Below, one piece after another: positions 3,581 through 64,000 of a stretch of DNA of 64,000 nt. Within the stretch, counting starts at the first letter, position 1. Each line of letters starts with the position of its first letter. The stretch is from NCBI RefSeq assembly GCF_001545035.1, contig NZ_FCOJ02000013.1, positions 1 to 64,000 of the forward strand, read 5' to 3'. Made by a program: the position numbers and the translations under genes. This DNA is from Caballeronia glebae (GTDB lineage Bacteria > Pseudomonadota > Gammaproteobacteria > Burkholderiales > Burkholderiaceae). The notes under the pieces are model-generated. The model was given only the letters and a program-made list of their open reading frames with translations. It was not told the DNA's origin and did no database searches.

Positions 3581-4852
3581 ATGAGCATGGTTGACCTCGA
3601 CCCTCCCCGCTTCCAGCCGCCGCGCCCCGTCGCCGGCGACGATGGATCGCGTCGCACCGTGCTGTACGGCGAGTACACCGTTTTCAGCGTGTTTCAGCCC
3701 GTGTTTTCGGTGTCGCACCGGCGCGCGATCGGCTATCACGCCTCCTTGCGCGCGCGCGACGACGCGCATCGCCACATTCCGTCCCACGAAGTGTTCACGC
3801 AGGCCGCGCGGCGCGGCGATCTGCTCGAACTCGGCCGGCTCGCGGAATCGCTGCATCTGGGCAACTTCAACGCATTCGACAGCCACGACGAATGGCTCTT
3901 TCTGAGCCTGCATCCCGCCGCGCTGATGGACACGAGCTACGGCGATGCGCTGCTCGCGTCGCTGAAGAACATCGGCCTTTCGCCGCAGCGCGTGGTGCTC
4001 GAAGTGCCCGAGCAGGCGGGCGGCGAGACGACGCGCTTCGCCGAAATCGTCGATTCGCTGCGCAAGTCGGGGTTCCTGATCGCGCTGGACGGCTTCGGCG
4101 TGAAGCATTCGAACATCGATCGCGTGTGGCATCTGCGGCCCGACATCGTGACGCTCGACCGCTGCATCCTTCAGCAGGCGACCGAGCACTCGCATATCGA
4201 GCGCGTGCTGCCGCGCCTCGTGTCGCTGCTGCATGAATCCGGTCAGCTCGTTCTGATGGGCGGCCTCGCGACCGAACGCGATGCGCTTATCGCGCTGGAA
4301 TGCAATGTGGACTTCGTGCAGGGCGCGTATTTCGCGCAGCCGAGCGTCGATTCGGTGCACAGCGAAGTCGCGGCCGGCGTGATGGATGCGTTGTCGGCGG
4401 CCTCGCGCGAGCGCGTCGCGGCGCGCGAGCGGGCGCAAATCGCGCGTCTCGAACCTTACGTGAGCGGGCTGGGGCGCGCGTCAGTCAAGCTGATGGAAGG
4501 CGAGTCGCTCATAACCGCGACGTGCGAACTGCTGCAACTCGCCGACACCGCGCGCTGCTTCCTACTCGATCAGGCCGGCCGGCAGATCGGCGACAACGTC
4601 GTGCCGATCGTGCGCACGTCGCAACGCGCGAAGCGTTTCAGCCCGCTGCTGCATTCGGAGGGCGCTAGCTGGGAACGCCGGCCGTATTTCATCGAGGCGC
4701 TGCGCGCGCCGGGGCGCATGCATCTGACGGCGCCGTATCTGTCGATCAACGAGGCGCACCTTTGCGTGACGGCGTCGATCGCCGCGCAGACGCCTTATGG
4801 CTTGCAGGTGCTGTGCGTCGATATCAACTGGGAAGGCGCGAAGCAGCGATAA
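3581..4852 (+). CDS. Degenerate EAL protein with Cache-like C-terminus (YkuI-like)
   Basis: Soluble protein of about 423 residues with no signal peptide or membrane helix. Residues about 20-265 form an EAL domain whose catalytic motifs are eroded. The EAL signature position reads HAS (YHASLRA). DDFG reads DGFG (ALDGFGVKHSN). The EGVET position reads GGLAT, losing the glutamate, although the VQGAYFAQP end is kept. It is therefore probably a c-di-GMP receptor or a dead enzyme, not a phosphodiesterase. The last about 130 residues (RPYFIEALRAPGRMHLTAPYLS) resemble a PDC/Cache fold, the layout of Bacillus YkuI. I chose the ATG at 3581; a TTG at 3494 in the same frame would add 29 residues. Confidence 0.75.
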   Translation: MSMVDLDPPRFQPPRPVAGDDGSRRTVLYGEYTVFSVFQPVFSVSHRRAIGYHASLRARDDAHRHIPSHEVFTQAARRGDLLELGRLAESLHLGNFNAFDSHDEWLFLSLHPAALMDTSYGDALLASLKNIGLSPQRVVLEVPEQAGGETTRFAEIVDSLRKSGFLIALDGFGVKHSNIDRVWHLRPDIVTLDRCILQQATEHSHIERVLPRLVSLLHESGQLVLMGGLATERDALIALECNVDFVQGAYFAQPSVDSVHSEVAAGVMDALSAASRERVAARERAQIARLEPYVSGLGRASVKLMEGESLITATCELLQLADTARCFLLDQAGRQIGDNVVPIVRTSQRAKRFSPLLHSEGASWERRPYFIEALRAPGRMHLTAPYLSINEAHLCVTASIAAQTPYGLQVLCVDINWEGAKQR

Positions 4853-5074: not shown

Positions 5075-6211
5075 CTACGATCTCGCGCCGAGCGTCGCTC
5101 TGCCGCGCTGCTTTCCCCGCGTGAGATAACGCCCCAATCGAATCGACGGTTTTTCGATCGCGTAATACCCCGCGATGCTGACCGGAAGAATCAGCACGGC
5201 GGCGATGATCAGCGACATATCTTGATACGTGTCGCCGAAATAATGCAGGACGCCCAGCAAAACGATGCAGTGCAGGAGATAAAGGCTGAAGGAAATCTGG
5301 CCGAGGAACACCAATGGCCGTGCAGTCAGAAAGGCGGCGAATGGCCTGAGCGAAATCGCCAGAAGCAGAATGCCGGTCACGGCCGGAAGGACAACCCAGT
5401 CGTCCGCGAAACTGCGCAGCACATCGTTGGAAATCGAATGGCGCGTTATCGAGCCCACCAAACCATATAGGGCGAGAGAAATCGCCAATGCGCCGAAAAG
5501 CGATCGCGCGGAATATGAGCCAAGCTTCGATGCGATGGCTTCGCGATACCGCGCAATGAGCGCGCCGAGCATGAACATCGAAATGTAATGGATGGTCGGC
5601 ATCCATTCGCCCTGAATGCTCGCGTCCATGAGCGTGCGTTGCAGATGATGGTAATAGCCGAACGCCGCGAGCGACAAACAAACGCTTAGTGCTACAGAGA
5701 ACCATGCGGGCATGGCGAATACTATGACGACGAGAATCGGAAAGATAAGCGAGATGCGCATCTCGTAGACCAGCGACCAAAGCACCGGATCGAGCGTACA
5801 GTTGCTGAATGGAATCAGAAAATAGATGTGATTCAGCAGATCATGTCGATCGATGCCCGCGTGCCATGCCTGATTGGCCCATTCGCCGGTCCAGGACAGA
5901 TTCGACTGGTAGAGCACGCAATACGTGGCGTAGGCAGCGAGAACCGCAACCAGATAAGGGATGTAAATACGGCAGACGCGCTTGACCAAAAATTCGGCGA
6001 AACCTGGTTTGCTGTCGCCGGTAATTTGCATGGCGAGGGCGAACCCGCTCAGCGCAAAGAACAGAATCACGGCGGAATGCCCTTCCGCGATTACGCGCCA
6101 TGGAACGTGCTGCAGCCATCGCGTCGGCGTGATCTGCGCATAGTGATTGAACACGACCGTCAAAGCGGCAATGCCGCGCAGCGAATCGAGTTGATGATAG
6201 CGTGTCGTCAT
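5075..6211 (-). CDS. Membrane acyltransferase, OafA/Acyltransferase_3 family
   Basis: Integral membrane protein of 378 residues with about ten hydrophobic helices. The N-terminus YHQLDSLRGIAALTVVFNHY holds the family signature (D-x-L-R-G and the catalytic His in FNHY). A second conserved segment is LFFALSGFALA. These enzymes move acetyl or other acyl groups from cytoplasmic acyl-CoA onto sugars of LPS, exopolysaccharide or peptidoglycan. It stands alone between a small ORF and sodB, with no polysaccharide cluster around it, so the acceptor is unknown. Confidence 0.85.
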   Translation of the reverse strand: MTTRYHQLDSLRGIAALTVVFNHYAQITPTRWLQHVPWRVIAEGHSAVILFFALSGFALAMQITGDSKPGFAEFLVKRVCRIYIPYLVAVLAAYATYCVLYQSNLSWTGEWANQAWHAGIDRHDLLNHIYFLIPFSNCTLDPVLWSLVYEMRISLIFPILVVIVFAMPAWFSVALSVCLSLAAFGYYHHLQRTLMDASIQGEWMPTIHYISMFMLGALIARYREAIASKLGSYSARSLFGALAISLALYGLVGSITRHSISNDVLRSFADDWVVLPAVTGILLLAISLRPFAAFLTARPLVFLGQISFSLYLLHCIVLLGVLHYFGDTYQDMSLIIAAVLILPVSIAGYYAIEKPSIRLGRYLTRGKQRGRATLGARS

Positions 6212-7214: not shown

Positions 7215-8615
7215 TCAGAATTCATCTGACAGACGCGCCTGCACGTCGGCGAGCACCACGTCCGCCGATCCTTCCGCGAGATGGACGGTGAGCGGCCGCT
7301 TCGGCTTCAATGCGTTCGGCGCACGCACGGCGCGGCCGGTTTGCGCGTCGATCAAGGCGGCATAGCCGCGTTCGAGTGTGCGCTGCGGGCTCAGCACAAG
7401 CAAGCGCGCCGCCAGTTCCGAAACGCACGCTTTCTCTCGTTCCGCGCGCCGCTCGTGCGCGCTGCCGATGCGCTGCGCGAGCCTCAGCAGATGCTCGCGC
7501 TCGACGGCGACATTCGGACGTTTGCGCTGCCAGCGGTAATGCGCCAGCGCGAAATGCGCCCGCGCATCCCGCACGGGCCGCGCGCCCGCCGCCGTGAGCC
7601 GGCTTGCCAGCTGCCGCAGATGCGTTCGCTGCCGCGCCAGCCGTTCGACGGGACTCACGAGCCGGCGCGTGAGCCAGTCGAGTTGCTGCGCGCGGCGTTC
7701 CATCGTCCGGCCAAAGCCGCGCGCGAGCGCCGCATGCCGATGATCGAGATCGCGCAACAGCAACACGCGCTGCGGACTGACGAGCTCGGCGGCGGCGGTC
7801 GGCGTAGGCGCACGCACGTCGGCGGCGAAATCGGCGATGGTGAAATCGGTTTCGTGGCCGACGCCGCTCACCACCGGCAACGCGCTCGCCGCGATCGCGC
7901 GCGCGAGGACTTCCTCGTTGAACGCCCACAGATCCTCGATCGACCCGCCGCCGCGACACACGATCAGCACATCGACCTCGCGCCGCGCGTTCGCGGCTTC
8001 GACCATCGCCGCCAGCTTCGCGCCGACGCCCGCGCCCTGCACCGGCGCCGGATACACGACGACCGGCACATGCGGCGCACGGCGCGCGAGGGTCGTGAGC
8101 ACATCGCGCAACGCGGCCGCCTGCAACGACGTCACGATGCCGATGCCTCGCGGATGCGCCGGCAATGCGCGCTTGCGTTCGGCCGCGAAGAGTCCTTCGC
8201 TTTCGAGTTGCGCCTTCAGGCGCAGAAACGCTTCGTAAAGCCGGCCCTGCCCCGTGCGACGCACCGCTTCGACGTTGAGTTGCAGTTCGCCGCGCGGCTC
8301 GTACATCGTGACGAGTGCGCGCACCTCGATCTTGTCGCCCTCGCGCGGCGTGAACTCGGCGTACTGCGCGCGGCCGCGGAACATCACGCAGCGCATCTGC
8401 GCGTTCGCGTCCTTGATCGAGAAGTACCAATGGCCGCTCGCCGCGCGCGTGAAGTTCGACACCTCGCCCGAAACCCAGACGAGTGGAAACGACCGTTCGA
8501 GCATCGAGTTGATCGCGCGGTTGAGCACGGAAACGAGGATGACGGCATCGCCGCTTTGCGACGGCTGGGAATCGGGAATCATGGCTGGACGGGAAAAAGC
8601 TTCAGGCGCGGCCAT
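7215..8615 (-). CDS. xseA: Exodeoxyribonuclease VII large subunit
   Basis: Catalytic subunit of ExoVII, which degrades single-stranded DNA from both ends together with several copies of XseB (not encoded here). The N-terminal OB-fold covers about residues 20-120 ([35 protein letters not shown]). The nuclease core follows, with [55 protein letters not shown] and [10 protein letters not shown], then a coiled-coil-rich tail. The start is uncertain: ATG codons at 8615 and 8582, and a start at 8663, share the frame without a good ribosome-binding site. Confidence 0.93.
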
Positions 8616-9078
8616 TGTCTGCGAGGCACAACCGCCGCTTAACGAGGTACGCAAGTGTAACAAGTGTCCACACAGAAAGACTTACCGCCGTGCGCCGCGC
8701 GACATTGGCTCAGGCCGATGAGTTCGTTGCAAGCGACTGATTTTTCTACGATAAATTTTTACGAACACTGTCACTCCCGGAGCAACTCTTTCCTGAGAGG
8801 CGATCGCGGTTTGTCGGCTGGAAGTTCTCCACAGAGTTATCCACAGGCGTCCGAATGGCACGGAATCGAATCGTCGCCCTCGCTCGCGACTGGCGCCCAC
8901 GGCCCGCGCGCGCTAGAGTGCCGGGTTCCAGCACCGGCTGGCGCGGCCGAATCCTGTTCGATTGCGAGCCGCGAAACGCCGGGCGTCGTCCAACGCCAAC
9001 CGTGATCCGAGGAGCTGCCGTTGCACGCCATGCCGTACCCGACCTGCCGCCCGCCAGCGTTCAGCGCGAAGGCGGTCC
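8616..9078. other. Gene-poor gap between xseA and lpxK with one DnaA box
   Basis: About 460 nt between the divergent xseA and lpxK genes. Short frames exist on both strands but none has recognisable family motifs or a good start. The one clear site is TTATCCACA at 8837-8845, a perfect DnaA-box consensus. In related genomes, as I recall, exbB/exbD-like genes precede lpxK; they are not here. Confidence 0.5.
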
Positions 9079-10095
9079 ATGTCTGATCTCAAGCCGCCGC
9101 TCGAAAACTTCCTCGCCCGCGAATGGCGTCGGCGCGGCCCGGTCGCCTGGGCGCTGACGCCTTTCGCCTGCATCTTCGGCGCGATTGCGGCCACGCGCCG
9201 CGCCTTCTACGAATTCGGCTGGATGAAGCGCGTCGAGGTGGGCGCGCCAGTGGTCGTCGTGGGCAACGTGACCGTCGGCGGAACGGGCAAGACGCCGACC
9301 GTCATCGCGCTCGTCGAAGCGTTGCGCGCCGCCGGGTTTCAGCCGGGCGTGGTCTCGCGCGGCTACGGCGCGAAGGTCGCGAAGCCCACGAGCGTCACGG
9401 CGAGCTCCGCCGCCGCGCAGGTCGGCGACGAGCCGCTCCTGATCGCGCGGCGCACGCACGCGCCGGTGTTCGTCTGCCCGGATCGCGTCGCCGCCGCGAA
9501 GGCGCTGCTCGAAGCGCATCCGCACGTCGATGTCCTCGTTTCCGACGACGGCCTGCAGCACTATCGCCTCGCGCGCGCGTTCGAACTCGTAGTCTTCGAT
9601 GCCCGTCTCGGCGGCAACGGCTTTCTGCTGCCAGCGGGCCCGTTGCGCGAGCCGATGTCGCGCCGCCGCGATGCGACGCTCATCAACAGTCCCTACGAGC
9701 GCACGCTGCCGCCGTGGCCGAACACCTTCGCGCTGGAACTCGAATCCGGCGACGCATGGCTGCTCGACGATCCGCACCAGCGCCGCCCGCTCGATCAGTT
9801 CGCCGGAGAAAAAGTGGTCGCGGCGGCGGGCATCGGCTCGCCCGAGCGCTTCTTCGCGACGCTGCGCGCGGCGGGCATCGCGCCGGCGACGCGCGCGTTT
9901 CCCGATCACTATTCGTATCGCGAGAATCCGTTTGCCGGCATCGACGCCGATGCGATCCTGATCACCGAAAAGGATGCAGTAAAATTGGGCGCCTGGCGCG
10001 ACGCACGCATCTGGGTCGTCCCGGTGCAAGCCGTGCTAAGACCGCGCCTCATCGCTCTAGTTGTGGAGAAACTCCGTGGACGCACGTCTGCTTGA
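9079..10095 (+). CDS. lpxK: Tetraacyldisaccharide 4'-kinase
   Basis: Inner-membrane-associated kinase that phosphorylates the 4' position of the lipid A disaccharide precursor. It has 338 residues. A hydrophobic N-terminal stretch ([15 protein letters not shown]) is followed by the Walker A motif [12 protein letters not shown] near residue 60. Further motifs are [26 protein letters not shown] and LPAGPLREP, with the C-terminal ITEKDAVKL block. The frame is open upstream to 8962, but [16 protein letters not shown] at 9079 is the family-like start. It is the first gene of a lipid A/KDO run (lpxK, Trm112-like, kdsB). Confidence 0.95.
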
Positions 10096-55282: not shown

Positions 55283-55526
55283 CTTTCTGACGTTCGCGTT
55301 CGCCCGGTTCGCCCATCGTCAGCCGTACCGCGCCGATCTCGTAGGCGCCAAGCCGAAGCCCTCCTCTCTCTAAGAAGCCTCTGCCTTCCATCTGACTTTC
55401 GGCCTTCTCCGATAGTACGCACCGCCTCGCCTCCTTAATATCCATTTGATTGATATTGAGATACGGACCCGAGCCGGCCACGCGGCGTGCCGTCCGGCGA
55501 AAACAGGTCGTCACAAGGAGCGTTTC

Positions 55527-57692
55527 GTGCAAGAGAAGTCCATCGCTGAGTCAGCCTCTATTGAAGATCCGAAGGTGAGACTCGCGCAGGATATCGCGGC
55601 TCGTCCCGAATCGGCGCAAGCGCACTACGAGCTGGGCAAACTTCTCTCGATGCGCGGCCGTCACGACGAAGCGCTTCTTCACCTCGAAAAAGCAACGCGG
55701 CTACGAGCCGACTGGCCCGAAGCGCTGAACAGTCTCGCCATCGTGCTGATCGGAAACGGCAAGCGAGACGCCGCCGAAGCCGCATTGCGTCAGGCACTCG
55801 CCGCGCGACCGGGGTTTGCGGAAGCCCATTGCAATCTCGCCAATCTGCTTTCGGATTCGAATCGCCCACAGGAAGCCGAAACCGCGTTTCGCCACGCACT
55901 CGACGCCGCGCCCGGCTTCGAAGGCGCGCGTCTTGCGCTCGCGAAGCTCTTCGTTCGCATGAGTCGCATCGACGAAGCCGCCGAACAGCTTCAGATCGTT
56001 CTGGAATCGGCGCCAACGAATGCCGACGCGCATCACACGCTCGGCAAGCTGTATCTGGACAGCAATCGGCTCGACGAAGCGCTCGCCCCGCTGCGGAAAG
56101 CGTGCGAGCTGAGCCCGGATGACGCGCATGCGCACGCCAAGCTCGGCGTCGCGTTGTACGACCTCTCGAAATGGGGGGAAGCAGAACCGCCCTTGCGCCG
56201 CGCGCTCGAACTGGACGAGGACATCAATTACGCCTGGGTCGCGCTCGGTATCGTGTTGAGAGTCAAGCGCAAGCTCGATGAATCCGAAGCCGCCATTCGC
56301 CGCGCGCTCGCCAACAGGCCGAACTATGCGGCTGCTCACGTCGAACTCGGAAATGTACTGCTCGCCAAGAATAGCGGCGATATCGAAGGCGCGTTGCGCG
56401 CGTTCCACCGGGCAACGGAAATCGATCCGGCGATAGGCTCCGCGCACAGCAACCTCAGCTATTCGCGCTATTTCAACTGCGAGGACGGCTTTCAGTTGCT
56501 CGCCGAAGCCCGTCGTTTCAACGCGCATCACGAGGCGGAATTACCGCACGGGCCGCTCCATTTCGACAACGACCGCTCACGCTCACGCAGGCTGCGCGTG
56601 GGGTATGTGTCGCCGGATTTCCGGCAACACTGTCAGTCGCTATTCATGACTCCGCTTCTGACCGGTCACGATCACGATGTCGTCGAAGTGTTTTGCTACT
56701 TCACTTCGCGCAACGAGGACGACACGACGCGCCATCTGAAAACATGCGCCGACGAATGGCGAGACGTCCACCGTCTGAGCGACGACGAACTCGCCGATCA
56801 AATCAAGACAGATCGAATCGACGTGCTCTTCGATCTGACCATGCACATGTCGGCGTGCCGGCCGCGTCTGTTCGCGCTTCGCCCCGCGCCGATCCAGATC
56901 GCGTGGCTCGCTTATCCCGGCACGACAGGCAGCAAGGCGATCGGCTACCGGCTGACCGACCCGTGGCTCGATCCCGTCGATGCGTCCAATGGCGACGCCC
57001 GCTACAGCGAAAAGTCGATCCGCCTGCCCGATACGTTCTGGTGCTACGACCCGCTCACGACAGAGCCGCAAGTGAGCCCGCTCCCGGCCGACGACGCCGG
57101 GTTCATCACCTTCGGTTGCCTGAATAATCCGTACAAGCTCACCGATCGCACGTTCGCGCTCTGGGCGGCGGTGCTGCGCGAAGTCCCGCTCTCGCGTCTG
57201 CGTCTGCTGGTGGCGCACGGCGAGGCGCGGGCGTCGGTCGCGTCGAAGTTCGCGGCGCTCGGCATCGACCCCGAACGCGTGATCTTCACCGACTATCAGC
57301 CGCGCAATGCTTATCTGCGAAGCTATCGGGAAATCGACATCGCGCTCGACACGTTCCCGTACAACGGCCACACGACGAGCCTCGACGGACTGTGGATGGG
57401 CGTGCCGATGGTAACGATCATCGGCAGAACGCCGGCGAGCCGGGCGGGATATGCGCTGCTCTCCAACGTCGGGCTGCCGGAACTCGCGGCCGACTCGGAC
57501 GCCGGATTCGTCGCGAAAGCCGCGGCGCTCGCGACCGACCTGCCCCGCCTGCGCGAATTGCGCGCCGGCCTGCGTGCGCGCATGGAAAGCTCGGCGCTCA
57601 TGGATGGCGCGCGTTTCGCTCGCGGCATCGAGCAGGCTATCCGGACGGCGTGGGCGGACTGGTGCGATTCCGACGAAGCCGCGCGCGTTTAA
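55527..57692 (+). CDS. TPR protein with O-GlcNAc transferase-like domain
   Basis: 721-residue cytoplasmic protein. Residues about 15-310 hold eight or so TPR repeats (AHYELGKLLSMRGRHDEALLH, AHHTLGKLYLDSNRLDEAL). The C-terminal Glyco_transf_41 (SPINDLY/OGT) domain begins RRLRVGYVSPDFRQHCQSLFM. It contains AYPGTTGSKAIGYRLTDPWLDP, ITFGCLNNPYKLTDRT and DTFPYNGHTTSLDGLWMGVP. Such proteins transfer GlcNAc or other sugars to Ser/Thr (or Asn). Start chosen: GTG at 55527 behind AAGGAG. A second, N-truncated copy begins at about 63170. Confidence 0.87.
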   Translation: MQEKSIAESASIEDPKVRLAQDIAARPESAQAHYELGKLLSMRGRHDEALLHLEKATRLRADWPEALNSLAIVLIGNGKRDAAEAALRQALAARPGFAEAHCNLANLLSDSNRPQEAETAFRHALDAAPGFEGARLALAKLFVRMSRIDEAAEQLQIVLESAPTNADAHHTLGKLYLDSNRLDEALAPLRKACELSPDDAHAHAKLGVALYDLSKWGEAEPPLRRALELDEDINYAWVALGIVLRVKRKLDESEAAIRRALANRPNYAAAHVELGNVLLAKNSGDIEGALRAFHRATEIDPAIGSAHSNLSYSRYFNCEDGFQLLAEARRFNAHHEAELPHGPLHFDNDRSRSRRLRVGYVSPDFRQHCQSLFMTPLLTGHDHDVVEVFCYFTSRNEDDTTRHLKTCADEWRDVHRLSDDELADQIKTDRIDVLFDLTMHMSACRPRLFALRPAPIQIAWLAYPGTTGSKAIGYRLTDPWLDPVDASNGDARYSEKSIRLPDTFWCYDPLTTEPQVSPLPADDAGFITFGCLNNPYKLTDRTFALWAAVLREVPLSRLRLLVAHGEARASVASKFAALGIDPERVIFTDYQPRNAYLRSYREIDIALDTFPYNGHTTSLDGLWMGVPMVTIIGRTPASRAGYALLSNVGLPELAADSDAGFVAKAAALATDLPRLRELRAGLRARMESSALMDGARFARGIEQAIRTAWADWCDSDEAARV

Positions 57693-60642: not shown

Positions 60643-61359
60643 TTATTGTCCTTCGGAGCGAATTTCGACGCCGCTCGTCGAGATCTCGACGCGTCGATTC
60701 TGGGCACGACCTTGCGGCGTAGCGTTCGACGCGACAGGCACGGTCGCGGCAAAACCGCGAACGTCGTAGGAGTTAGCCGTCAACCCGTGGGAAACGAGAT
60801 ACTCCTGCGCCGAGCGAGCACGCGCTGTCGAAAGACGCTGGTTCAGAGCCTGCGAACCCGTCGAATCCGTGTGACCGGAAATAACCAGGCGATCAATCCT
60901 GTAACCCTTGTTCGCTGCCACGAATTCGTCGAGCTTGCGTTGTGCGACCGGGCTGAGCTGTGCGCTGTTCGTCGCAAAGTTCGCGTCGCCCTCAAGGGTC
61001 AGCGAGCGAAGCTGCTTCGGCACGGGAGCGGGAACCGGAACAGGCGCCACGACCGGCTTGGCTGCCGCCGGCTCATCACCGCACTTGAACGTGATCTCGT
61101 TCGGATCTCCCTTGGCGCCTTGCTTGGAGTTCATGTGATCCACGGCTCCGATCAGACGAATTTTCTGATCTTTACAGATCTTCTTCGCCACATCGACGCA
61201 GGTCTTGCTGGTTTCCAGCAAACCCAGACACTGGACGCGCCACGCCTGATCGCCGGATGCCAGCGTGACCACGTCCGCGTTGTGCATGGGGCCGGAATAG
61301 CTCGTACAGCCCGTTACAACCGCCGCAATGACGGCGGCCATAAGTACTCGAATGTACAT
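60643..61359 (-). CDS. OmpA family lipoprotein
   Basis: 238-residue outer-membrane lipoprotein. The signal and lipobox are VLMAAVIAAVVTGC (Cys at about residue 18). A cysteine-containing middle (about residues 40-95) and a Pro/Val linker precede the OmpA domain, with ANFATNSAQLSPVAQRKLDEF and ISGHTDSTGSQALNQRLSTARA. Its start lies 69 nt downstream of the adhesin stop and it is probably in one operon with it. It may anchor or assist the adhesin, as SadB/OmpA-type partners do (inference). Confidence 0.88.
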   Translation of the reverse strand: MYIRVLMAAVIAAVVTGCTSYSGPMHNADVVTLASGDQAWRVQCLGLLETSKTCVDVAKKICKDQKIRLIGAVDHMNSKQGAKGDPNEITFKCGDEPAAAKPVVAPVPVPAPVPKQLRSLTLEGDANFATNSAQLSPVAQRKLDEFVAANKGYRIDRLVISGHTDSTGSQALNQRLSTARARSAQEYLVSHGLTANSYDVRGFAATVPVASNATPQGRAQNRRVEISTSGVEIRSEGQ

Positions 61360-61428: not shown

Positions 61429-63171
61429 TTACCACTGATACGCTGCGCCGATACCCACCGTCGTGCCCGCCTGACTGTAGCCCGCACCCACCTTCATCTT
61501 GATGTTTTGGGTGATACGCGCCGACGCGCCGATAGCCGTAGCCTGGTAGCCCTTGTAGTTGGCGGTAGCAATGCCCATGGCGATCGTCTTGCCCTGATCG
61601 ACATCCGGGATCATCGTCAGCGCTGTCGCAGCCGCAACACCCGAGTAGGCAGCACGTGCAGTCGAACTGATCTGATCGCCCAGTGCGTTGACCTTCTGGT
61701 CCGTATAGGAGTTGGCTTGGCTGATGCCCTGATTCAACTGATTCAGGTTCACAGCGTCCGTACCTTGCGTACCAGCCGCAACGTTGGTGATCTGGCGTTC
61801 GCTGCCCGCCGAACCAACCGACACGGTGTTGTCACGATCCGCCACCGAGTTCGCACCCAGCGCCACGGCGTTGTTAGCCGAAGCGGTAGCGCCCGCACCG
61901 ATCGCCGTTGCCTGGTTGCCCGACGCGTTAGCGCTGGCGCCCATTGCAGTAGCGTGCGTGCCAGTTGCTACGGCACCCTCGGTATCGCGATCGCCCTGAG
62001 CCGTGAAGAACGGGTTCGCAGCATCTTCAGCGATATTCACCACGTTGCCGAGTGCATCCTGCAACTGCTGGTAGTTCACCGCATCGCTGGCGGACGAGCC
62101 GTTCGCGACGTTGTGAATGATCGTGCCGCCGGTTTGCGTCGTGGTGTTGTACGTGTCGCCGCCCAACGTAAGGCTGTTGTGCGTCGAGTCGTCGTACTGA
62201 ACCGCATTCTTCGTCAGCGTGTTCACGCTGTTGGTGATGTTCGTGACCTCACCCTGCAGCGAATTCACCGCCGAGTTGGTCGCGTACAACTGCGAGCCGT
62301 TCACAGCATCGGTCGAACCCGCCGAGACGCGTCCTGCCGCCACGTTCGTGATCGTGCGCTCAGCGCCCGGCGAACCGACGCTCACCGTACCGATCGGGGT
62401 CGAGCCTGCATACCCGTAGTACTGTCCAGCAATCGAATCGCCAACGGTGCCGACAGCTTGGGTCGAAATCGAACCCGCGCCGAGAGCCACGTCGTTCTTG
62501 TTGTTCGCAATGGCGCCCATACCGATTGCAACCGAGTCCTCACCCAACGCTTGCGAGTCCGCTCCCGTGCTGTTCGCATGGAAGTACTTCGTGCCCGAAC
62601 CGTAGATGTTGTTGACCGAGTTGCTGATGTTCGTGACATTGCCCGCAACATTCGACAACTGCGAGTAGTTCACTGCGTCGCTATCGTTCGTGCCGTCAGC
62701 GAGGTTCGTGATCTTCGTGCCGCCCGTGTGCGTCGTGCTGTTGTACGCCGGACCCGCCAGCGTCACGCTGTTGTAGTTCGACGTGTTGTCGTACTTCACA
62801 GCGCCTTCACCCGACGCGTTGATCGCGTTCCCGAGCGCCTGATTCGTCGCGTACAGCTGCGAACCGTTGATCGCATCCGTCGAGTCGGCCGTGATCTGGC
62901 CCGCTCCAACGTTCGTGATCGTGCGCTCTTGGCCCTTGCTACCGACCGACACCGTGCTCTGCGCGTTCGAACCCGCGAACGAGTAGTACTTGCCGTGGAG
63001 CGTCGCGCCCGGGGTGTTCACCACCGGCGCCGTCGTCGAGTTTGCACCCAGCGCTACGTCGTTCGTGAAGTTCGCAACCGCACCCGTACCGATTGCAACC
63101 GAGTCCGCACCCTTACCCACCGAGACCACGCCCGTCGCGTCCGAGCCTGCGTACGAGTAAGCCTTGCCGCC
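61429..63171 (-). CDS. YadA-type trimeric autotransporter adhesin, 5'-truncated
   Basis: About 580 residues of a collagen-binding-type adhesin. Head repeats of the YadA type recur (SVAIGTGAVANFTNDVALGA, ATAIGAGATASANNAVALGA) with neck motifs (INGSQLYATN, AVNYSQL). A final coiled coil leads to the four-strand membrane anchor from about 61.72 kb, ending GIGAAYQW. No signal peptide or ESPR is present. At the 5' end the head pattern GKAYSYAGS stops at about 63170, followed by unrelated sequence and an in-frame stop at 63205-63207. The gene is cut by a rearrangement or by a wrong join. Confidence 0.85.
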   Translation of the reverse strand, partial: GGKAYSYAGSDATGVVSVGKGADSVAIGTGAVANFTNDVALGANSTTAPVVNTPGATLHGKYYSFAGSNAQSTVSVGSKGQERTITNVGAGQITADSTDAINGSQLYATNQALGNAINASGEGAVKYDNTSNYNSVTLAGPAYNSTTHTGGTKITNLADGTNDSDAVNYSQLSNVAGNVTNISNSVNNIYGSGTKYFHANSTGADSQALGEDSVAIGMGAIANNKNDVALGAGSISTQAVGTVGDSIAGQYYGYAGSTPIGTVSVGSPGAERTITNVAAGRVSAGSTDAVNGSQLYATNSAVNSLQGEVTNITNSVNTLTKNAVQYDDSTHNSLTLGGDTYNTTTQTGGTIIHNVANGSSASDAVNYQQLQDALGNVVNIAEDAANPFFTAQGDRDTEGAVATGTHATAMGASANASGNQATAIGAGATASANNAVALGANSVADRDNTVSVGSAGSERQITNVAAGTQGTDAVNLNQLNQGISQANSYTDQKVNALGDQISSTARAAYSGVAAATALTMIPDVDQGKTIAMGIATANYKGYQATAIGASARITQNIKMKVGAGYSQAGTTVGIGAAYQW

Positions 63172-64000
63172 AAGCCGCCGCTTCGCGAAGCATTTCGAGA
63201 CGCCTTACCTCGCGCGCGAAGCGGTGTATCCGAACGACCGTTCTCCCGCGCGGCGACTGCGCGTAGGCTATGTCTCGCCCGATTTCCGCAACCACTGTCA
63301 GGCGCTGTTCATGCGCCCGCTGTTGAAGAGCCACGATCACGAAGCGGTCAAGGTGTATTGCTATTCGAGCGCTTCGACGCCGGATAACGTGACACAGGAG
63401 CTAAAGGGTTACGCCGACATCTGGCGCGACGTCCACAAGCTCGACGACGACGAGCTAGCCGCGCAAATCAGGGAAGACCGCATCGACATTCTGGTCGATC
63501 TGACCATGCACATGTCCACCGCGCGGCCGCTGCTTTTCGCGCGCCGTCCCGCGCCGGTGCAGGTGGCGTGGCTCGCGTATCCGGGCACGACGGGCCTGAG
63601 TTCCATTGGCTACCGCTTCACCGATTCATGGCTCGATCCGCTTGGCGACACCGCCGCGGACGCCCGCTACAGCGAAAAGTCGATTCGCCTCGCCGATACC
63701 TTCTGGTGCTACGAACCGCTGAACGGCGATATCGAACCCGGTCCGCTTCCCGCCGATTCGGCGGGCCACATCACCTTCGGCTGCCTGAACAACCCGTGCA
63801 AGCTGACCGATCACACGTTCGGCCTTTGGGCGGAGGTCTTGCGCGCGGTGCCGGATTCTCGGCTGAAACTCCTTCTCGGGCATGGCGGCGCGCGCGAGGC
63901 GGTGAGGGGCAAGTTCGCGGCGCTCGGCATTGATCCCGCACGGCTGGATTTTCTCGAATATCAGCAAAGAGAGCAGTACTTGCGCACGTATTGCGAGATC
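63161..64000 (+). CDS. O-GlcNAc transferase-like fragment, N-truncated and 3'-partial
   Basis: Reading frame open from the in-frame stop at 63158-63160 to the window end. From 63176 it encodes RRFAKHFETPYLAREAVY, then LRVGYVSPDFRNHCQALFM. It continues with DILVDLTMHMSTARP, AWLAYPGTTGLSSIGYRFTD and ITFGCLNNPCKLTDHT. It is clearly a paralogue of the Glyco_transf_41 domain at 55527-57692, beginning at the residue matching Arg of EARRF there. The TPR half is absent, and no start codon lies at a sensible place; ATG at 63311 would cut into the domain. Probably broken. Confidence 0.8.

What the first reader, a model, noticed from the sequence alone, without database searches (positions are those of the whole stretch)
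63140..63230. Two unrelated genes broken at one point: adhesin 5' end joined to O-GlcNAc-transferase-like 5' end
The minus-strand YadA-type frame keeps its repeat pattern up to about 63170. At 63176 the plus strand starts matching the inner part of a Glyco_transf_41 protein at the residue equivalent to EARRF in the 55527-57692 gene. Neither gene has its own start; each has an in-frame stop just beyond the join. Both belong to repetitive multi-copy families, so an inversion, a deletion or a mis-join during assembly are all possible. GCCGCC-type microhomology lies at the junction.
Basis: seen in the sequence. Interest (0 to 1): 0.72.

Follow-up and report, generated by a model that had tools for sequence, protein, structure and literature searches.

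The report
Small inversion splitting two neighbouring genes
A 2.75-kb piece of a Caballeronia chromosome sits backwards in this assembly, cutting a surface-adhesin gene and the sugar-transferase gene beside it; it is a clean but ordinary rearrangement, more likely real than not, though an assembly error is not excluded.

Summary
The join at 63172-63173 is one end of a 2752-base inverted segment that runs to 65923 on the same contig (G000:C144), past the window's end. Nothing is missing: the adhesin's 5' end (with ESPR signal) lies at about 64.85-65.92 kb on the plus strand, and the TPR half of the Glyco_transf_41 gene at about 65.92-67.3 kb on the minus strand. Intact transferases of four relatives and the 30-residue adhesin unit independently give the same breakpoints to the base, so the exchange is reciprocal and lossless. 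Only 2 bp (AA/TT) are shared; there is no inverted repeat. Otherwise the 145.7-kb contig is collinear with Caballeronia peredens, and neither join was found in 57 other genomes of the genus. A deletion is refuted. Losslessness favours a real inversion (about 0.6). The repetitive adhesin, three further frame breaks in its 5' piece, the draft assembly, and published inversions needing longer homology keep a mis-oriented contig open (about 0.35). Relatives show a conserved OGT-like/adhesin gene pair whose adhesin is damaged in some of them. A rearrangement of a known kind; modest interest.

The parts
63172..63173 (.). Left crossover dinucleotide (AA; TT on the other strand), join of adhesin (minus) and transferase (plus). 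The partner join is at C144 65922-65923, outside the window.
63172..64000 (.). Visible part of the inverted segment; it continues to C144 65923 (2752 bases in all; contig and window share numbering)
61429..63171 (-). C-terminal piece of the YadA-type trimeric autotransporter adhesin (heads, stalks, membrane anchor); its 5' end is at C144 about 64851-65923 on the plus strand
63174..64000 (+). C-terminal (Glyco_transf_41) piece of the OGT-like gene; it continues to its stop at C144 64342; its TPR half is at C144 about 65924-67314 on the minus strand
63180..63191 (.). 12-base perfect palindrome, 6 bases from the left crossover
60643..61359 (-). OmpA-family gene, downstream neighbour of the adhesin here and in L043

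Best explanation
A real, recent, base-conserving inversion of 2752 bases (C144 63172-65923). Ancestrally an OGT-like TPR/GT41 gene lay about 0.5 kb upstream of an ESPR-type trimeric autotransporter adhesin on the same strand, with an OmpA-family gene after it. One cut fell inside the transferase gene, the other inside an adhesin head unit; the piece between was flipped and rejoined with only 2 bp shared. Both genes are split and swapped halves lie side by side at each end, so neither full product can be made. Shown: the geometry, its exactness, and the unflipped order in relatives. Inferred: that it happened in the cell; that the route was illegitimate end-joining of two breaks; and that the adhesin was already decaying.
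For: In C. peredens the transferase is one 833-aa frame to which the two pieces map in opposite directions, up to base 3849 and from base 3851. Two independent length constraints, the transferase in 4 of 4 intact relatives (in the fourth, L043, extrapolated by one residue) and the adhesin unit in 8 of 8 intact copies, give the same breakpoint sum to the base. No N in the window or in L009 and no inverted repeat. It is the only flipped same-locus block along the 145.7-kb contig. Ku genes are present: 3 matches.
Against: No reads were available. The genome is a draft of 194 contigs. Adhesin genes of this kind assemble badly from short reads (PMC8859334, passages), and contigs of two relatives end inside this gene. 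Three further frame breaks lie in the adhesin 5' piece, two of them beside exact repeats shared with the other piece. In Salmonella the inversions confirmed by experiment had at least 12 bp of inverted homology, and the two candidates with 7 and 9 bp failed (PMC3411829, passages).
Confidence: 0.6

Rival explanations
1. Assembly error: a small contig bounded by a break in the repetitive adhesin and a break in the transferase gene was placed in the wrong orientation; the living strain has the ancestral order and an uncut transferase.
For: Draft assembly; repeats of up to 46 nt exact between the adhesin pieces; contigs of C. peredens and G024 end inside this adhesin; clustered frame breaks in the adhesin 5' piece; all pieces except that one are open and constrained, dN/dS 0.16-0.26.
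Against: Both ends are lossless to the base; there are no N and no shared repeat at the crossovers; the join sequence matched at full length only itself in this genome. Contig ends that butt exactly at two places without overlap or gap would be unusual (general knowledge, not tested).
Confidence: 0.35
2. Programmed, reversible inversion (phase variation) that switches the adhesin and transferase genes by a site-specific recombinase.
For: The exchange is reciprocal and conservative with a 2-bp core, as serine recombinases make (recalled); the genome has 8 resolvase-domain matches.
Against: No inverted repeat at the ends; none of the 8 resolvase matches is on contig C144; neither join was found in 57 relatives; both cuts are inside coding sequence. 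Tyrosine recombinases were not searched.
Confidence: 0.03
3. Deletion or fusion that removed the 5' ends of both genes.
For: Inside the window alone both genes look truncated.
Against: Both missing halves are on the same contig within about 4.2 kb, and no base is lost at the crossover.
Confidence: 0.01

Closest known systems
Spontaneous chromosomal inversions in bacteria (Salmonella LT2 survey, PMC3411829, abstract and passages seen)
   Same: An inversion with short matching sequence at the endpoints
   Different: The confirmed Salmonella inversions had at least 12 bp of inverted homology; here 2 bp. Here both reciprocal joins are seen.
Rearranged and pseudogenised trimeric autotransporter loci, such as badA of Bartonella henselae (PMC8859334, passages seen)
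   Same: A modular, repeat-rich adhesin gene with frame-broken copies and rearrangements
   Different: There the proposed events reshuffle adhesin repeats; here the flip joins adhesin to an unrelated neighbouring gene, without repeats at the crossover
HMW1C-type GT41 glycosyltransferase and the trimeric autotransporter Knh of Kingella kingae (PMC9592894, passages seen)
   Same: A transferase matched by the GT41 family model beside a trimeric autotransporter
   Different: The Caballeronia enzyme is a TPR/OGT-like protein; no activity is known and the pairing rests on gene order alone
Site-specific DNA inversion systems (general knowledge)
   Same: A conservative flip of a few kb
   Different: No inverted repeat at the ends and no resolvase-family gene on the contig

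Membership tests
Trimeric autotransporter adhesin (YadA-like) | ESPR, head, stalk and membrane-anchor domains | tested here: met
   Met on the pieces searched apart: ESPR 6.6e-16, YadA_head, YadA_stalk, YadA_anchor 2.9e-18
Trimeric autotransporter adhesin (YadA-like) | One continuous reading frame from signal to anchor | tested here: not met
   Split by the inversion, plus three frame breaks in the 5' piece; this copy is broken as assembled
OGT-like GT41 glycosyltransferase | TPR array followed by a Glyco_transf_41 domain | tested here: met
   Both domains found on the two pieces; joined in one frame in relatives L040-L043
OGT-like GT41 glycosyltransferase | Sugar-transferase activity | not testable with these tools
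   No assay possible
Programmed invertible element | Inverted repeats at the two ends | tested here: not met
   Longest inverted shared words 9 nt, out of register; alignment score 12 against shuffles with mean 9.95 and maximum 16; 2-bp crossover identity
Programmed invertible element | Recombinase gene nearby | tested here: inconclusive
   0 of 8 resolvase-domain matches lie on contig C144; tyrosine recombinases were not searched
Assembly misjoin | Reads do not cross the joins | not testable with these tools

The most novel reading that the evidence does not exclude
A base-exact inversion without inverted repeats that disables an adhesin and its partner GT41 glycosyltransferase in one step, made by a recombinase or end-joining route that flips segments in Caballeronia at minimal homology, possibly reversibly.
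Probability: 0.06. Interest if true: 0.6.

Novelty: new member of a known kind. Interest (0 to 1): 0.3.

Why it matters
It turns an apparent fusion of two unrelated truncated genes into one small inversion with both ends known, so the two genes should not be recorded as having lost their starts. If real, it is a clear case of a nearly homology-free, lossless inversion in a bacterium with Ku genes. The side result, a conserved OGT-like/adhesin gene pair in some Caballeronia, makes adhesin glycosylation by that enzyme testable.

Tried and rejected
Deletion or fusion: rejected, all pieces are present. Homologous inversion between adhesin repeats: the long inverted repeats found (25 of 37 pairs shown) are adhesin copies that face each other because of the flip; the nearest such pair (I4) ends 33 bases from the left crossover and 90 from the right one. 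GCCGCC as recombining sequence: rejected. The joins elsewhere: in 57 other genomes of the genus only halves matched (in nearly all genomes only 14 candidate places were scored). A missing adhesin piece on another contig: with the C piece as query, the hits off C144 (C134, C186) are other adhesins at 39-56% identity. A first dN/dS run on the TPR half was out of frame and was dropped; it was redone, where the adhesin comparison used only the last 375 codons of the C piece. Strains of the same species: none available; whole genomes are held one per species, and notes that the window's own records may be left out. A check of indels in flanking genes against relatives, judged by eye, showed the frame-changing gaps inside the two transferase pieces in compensating pairs; it was not scored formally. 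Literature: titles and abstract starts of 20 of 83 papers on inversion, trimeric autotransporter, phase variation and Burkholderia (at least 3 of 4 terms) and of the 3 papers with Caballeronia and trimeric autotransporter showed none on this locus; searches were seen as listings only, apart from the four papers whose passages I read (the last, PMC6127331, on an adhesin cluster of Burkholderia cenocepacia, was not used).

Full report
What was checked. The window is bases 1-64000 of contig C144 (145,657 bases) of a 7.84-Mb draft genome in 194 contigs. The best match to the transferase piece in the named collection is Burkholderia (Caballeronia) peredens LMG 29314, whose contig has the same length (103,936) as G023:C75.

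The other half lies outside the window. A genome search with the adhesin piece found more adhesin sequence at C144 65385-65789 on the plus strand. Reading on, the plus strand at about 64851-65923 holds the adhesin's start with an ESPR domain (6.6e-16), then stalk and head repeats. The minus strand from about 67314 down to the join at 65923 holds a TPR array, the missing first half of the transferase. Both missing halves are thus to the right, in swapped orientation: the signature of an inversion.

Relatives show the unflipped order. In C. peredens the transferase is one 833-aa frame; the window-side piece maps to it in reverse up to base 3849 and the far piece forward from base 3851. Single open frames of 837, 861 and 885 aa occur in G024, G016 and G043. 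Of 58 genomes of the genus (own included), 15 had a strong match to the transferase piece; I read 5 of the 14 relatives. In all 5 an ESPR adhesin start lies downstream of the transferase on the same strand, 432-526 bases away in the 4 measured, against 508 here inside the flipped segment.

The exchange is exact. Call the inverted segment a..b in locus L009 (L009 position = C144 position minus 59999). In the four intact transferases the residues on either side of the cut are 3 residues apart (three read directly, L043 by one-residue extrapolation), which fixes a+b at 9097 (one search agrees). The adhesin unit from its VALG motif to its F/Y-A-G motif is 30 residues in 8 of 8 intact copies here and in relatives, which independently fixes a+b at 9097. 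In that register the run of identical bases at the crossover is only 2 bp, L009 3173-3174 against 5923-5924. The segment is therefore C144 63172-65923, 2752 bases, with nothing lost or gained at either end. There is no inverted repeat: the longest inverted shared words are 9 nt and out of register, and the local alignment score of 12 lies within 200 shuffles (mean 9.95, maximum 16). A 12-base palindrome lies 6 bases from the left crossover.

Scope. Along the contig, matches of 400 bases or more to C. peredens run down C49 and then up C75 in one order. The only same-locus blocks in the wrong orientation are those inside this segment; other off-diagonal rows are cross-matches between gene or repeat copies. 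Neither join was found in the 57 other genomes of the genus; only halves matched.

Real or assembly? For real: exactness at both ends, no N and no repeat at the cuts, and 3 Ku matches in the genome, so end-joining is possible. For an artefact: a draft assembly; adhesin genes of this type are hard to assemble from short reads (PMC8859334, passages); contigs of C. peredens and G024 end inside this same gene; and the adhesin 5' piece carries three more frame breaks near 64.99, 65.39 and 65.77 kb, the last two beside exact repeats of 22 and 46 nt shared with the other adhesin piece. In Salmonella, 5 of 7 tested inversions were confirmed, all with at least 12 bp of matching sequence at the junction; those with 7 and 9 bp failed (PMC3411829, passages). 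That Salmonella lacks Ku is recalled, not tested. I put a real inversion at 0.6 and an artefact at 0.35.

State of the genes. Pairwise dN/dS against C. peredens is 0.26 (440 codons) and 0.16 (388 codons) for the two transferase pieces; for the last 375 codons of the adhesin C piece against Caballeronia sp. L043 it is 0.21, and for OmpA against L043 0.14. These are averages over long branches (dS 0.8-1.7), but they fit constraint until recently, or genes that are not really cut. The adhesin here is damaged elsewhere too: in L043 it is split between two frames, and in G016, a five-contig genome, a short frame-broken remnant runs into the end of an OmpA-family gene; in G014 the transferase itself is split between frames. 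Decay of the adhesin, with the inversion as one more lesion that also cuts the transferase, is the simplest history if the inversion is real; the order of events is not shown.

Function. With halves on opposite strands neither gene can make its full product. By analogy with the HMW1C homologue that glycosylates the trimeric autotransporter Knh in Kingella (PMC9592894, passages), the intact pair may glycosylate the adhesin with the neighbouring GT41 enzyme. That is inference from gene order alone.

Noticed in passing
L040, L041, L042, L043, L044: An OGT-like GT41 gene lies directly upstream of an ESPR-type trimeric autotransporter in all five relatives read, suggesting an enzyme-adhesin pair.
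   Followed up: partly
L042 about 7607-8635 (minus strand), from a five-contig genome: The adhesin is reduced to a short frame-broken remnant that runs into the C-terminal part of an OmpA-family gene.
   Followed up: partly
C144 about 64.99, 65.39 and 65.77 kb: Three further frame breaks cluster in the adhesin 5' piece, two of them beside exact repeats shared with the other adhesin piece; decay and assembly trouble both fit.
   Followed up: partly
L040 base 1, L122 base 1, L041 base 1, L123 end: Contigs of C. peredens (C75, C49) and G024 (C85, C37) end inside the same adhesin gene, so it breaks assemblies repeatedly.
   Followed up: partly
window 55446-57692 and contigs C95, C96, C70: The genome holds several Glyco_transf_41 genes (9 matching stretches), one of them in the window 5.5 kb from the broken one.
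   Followed up: no
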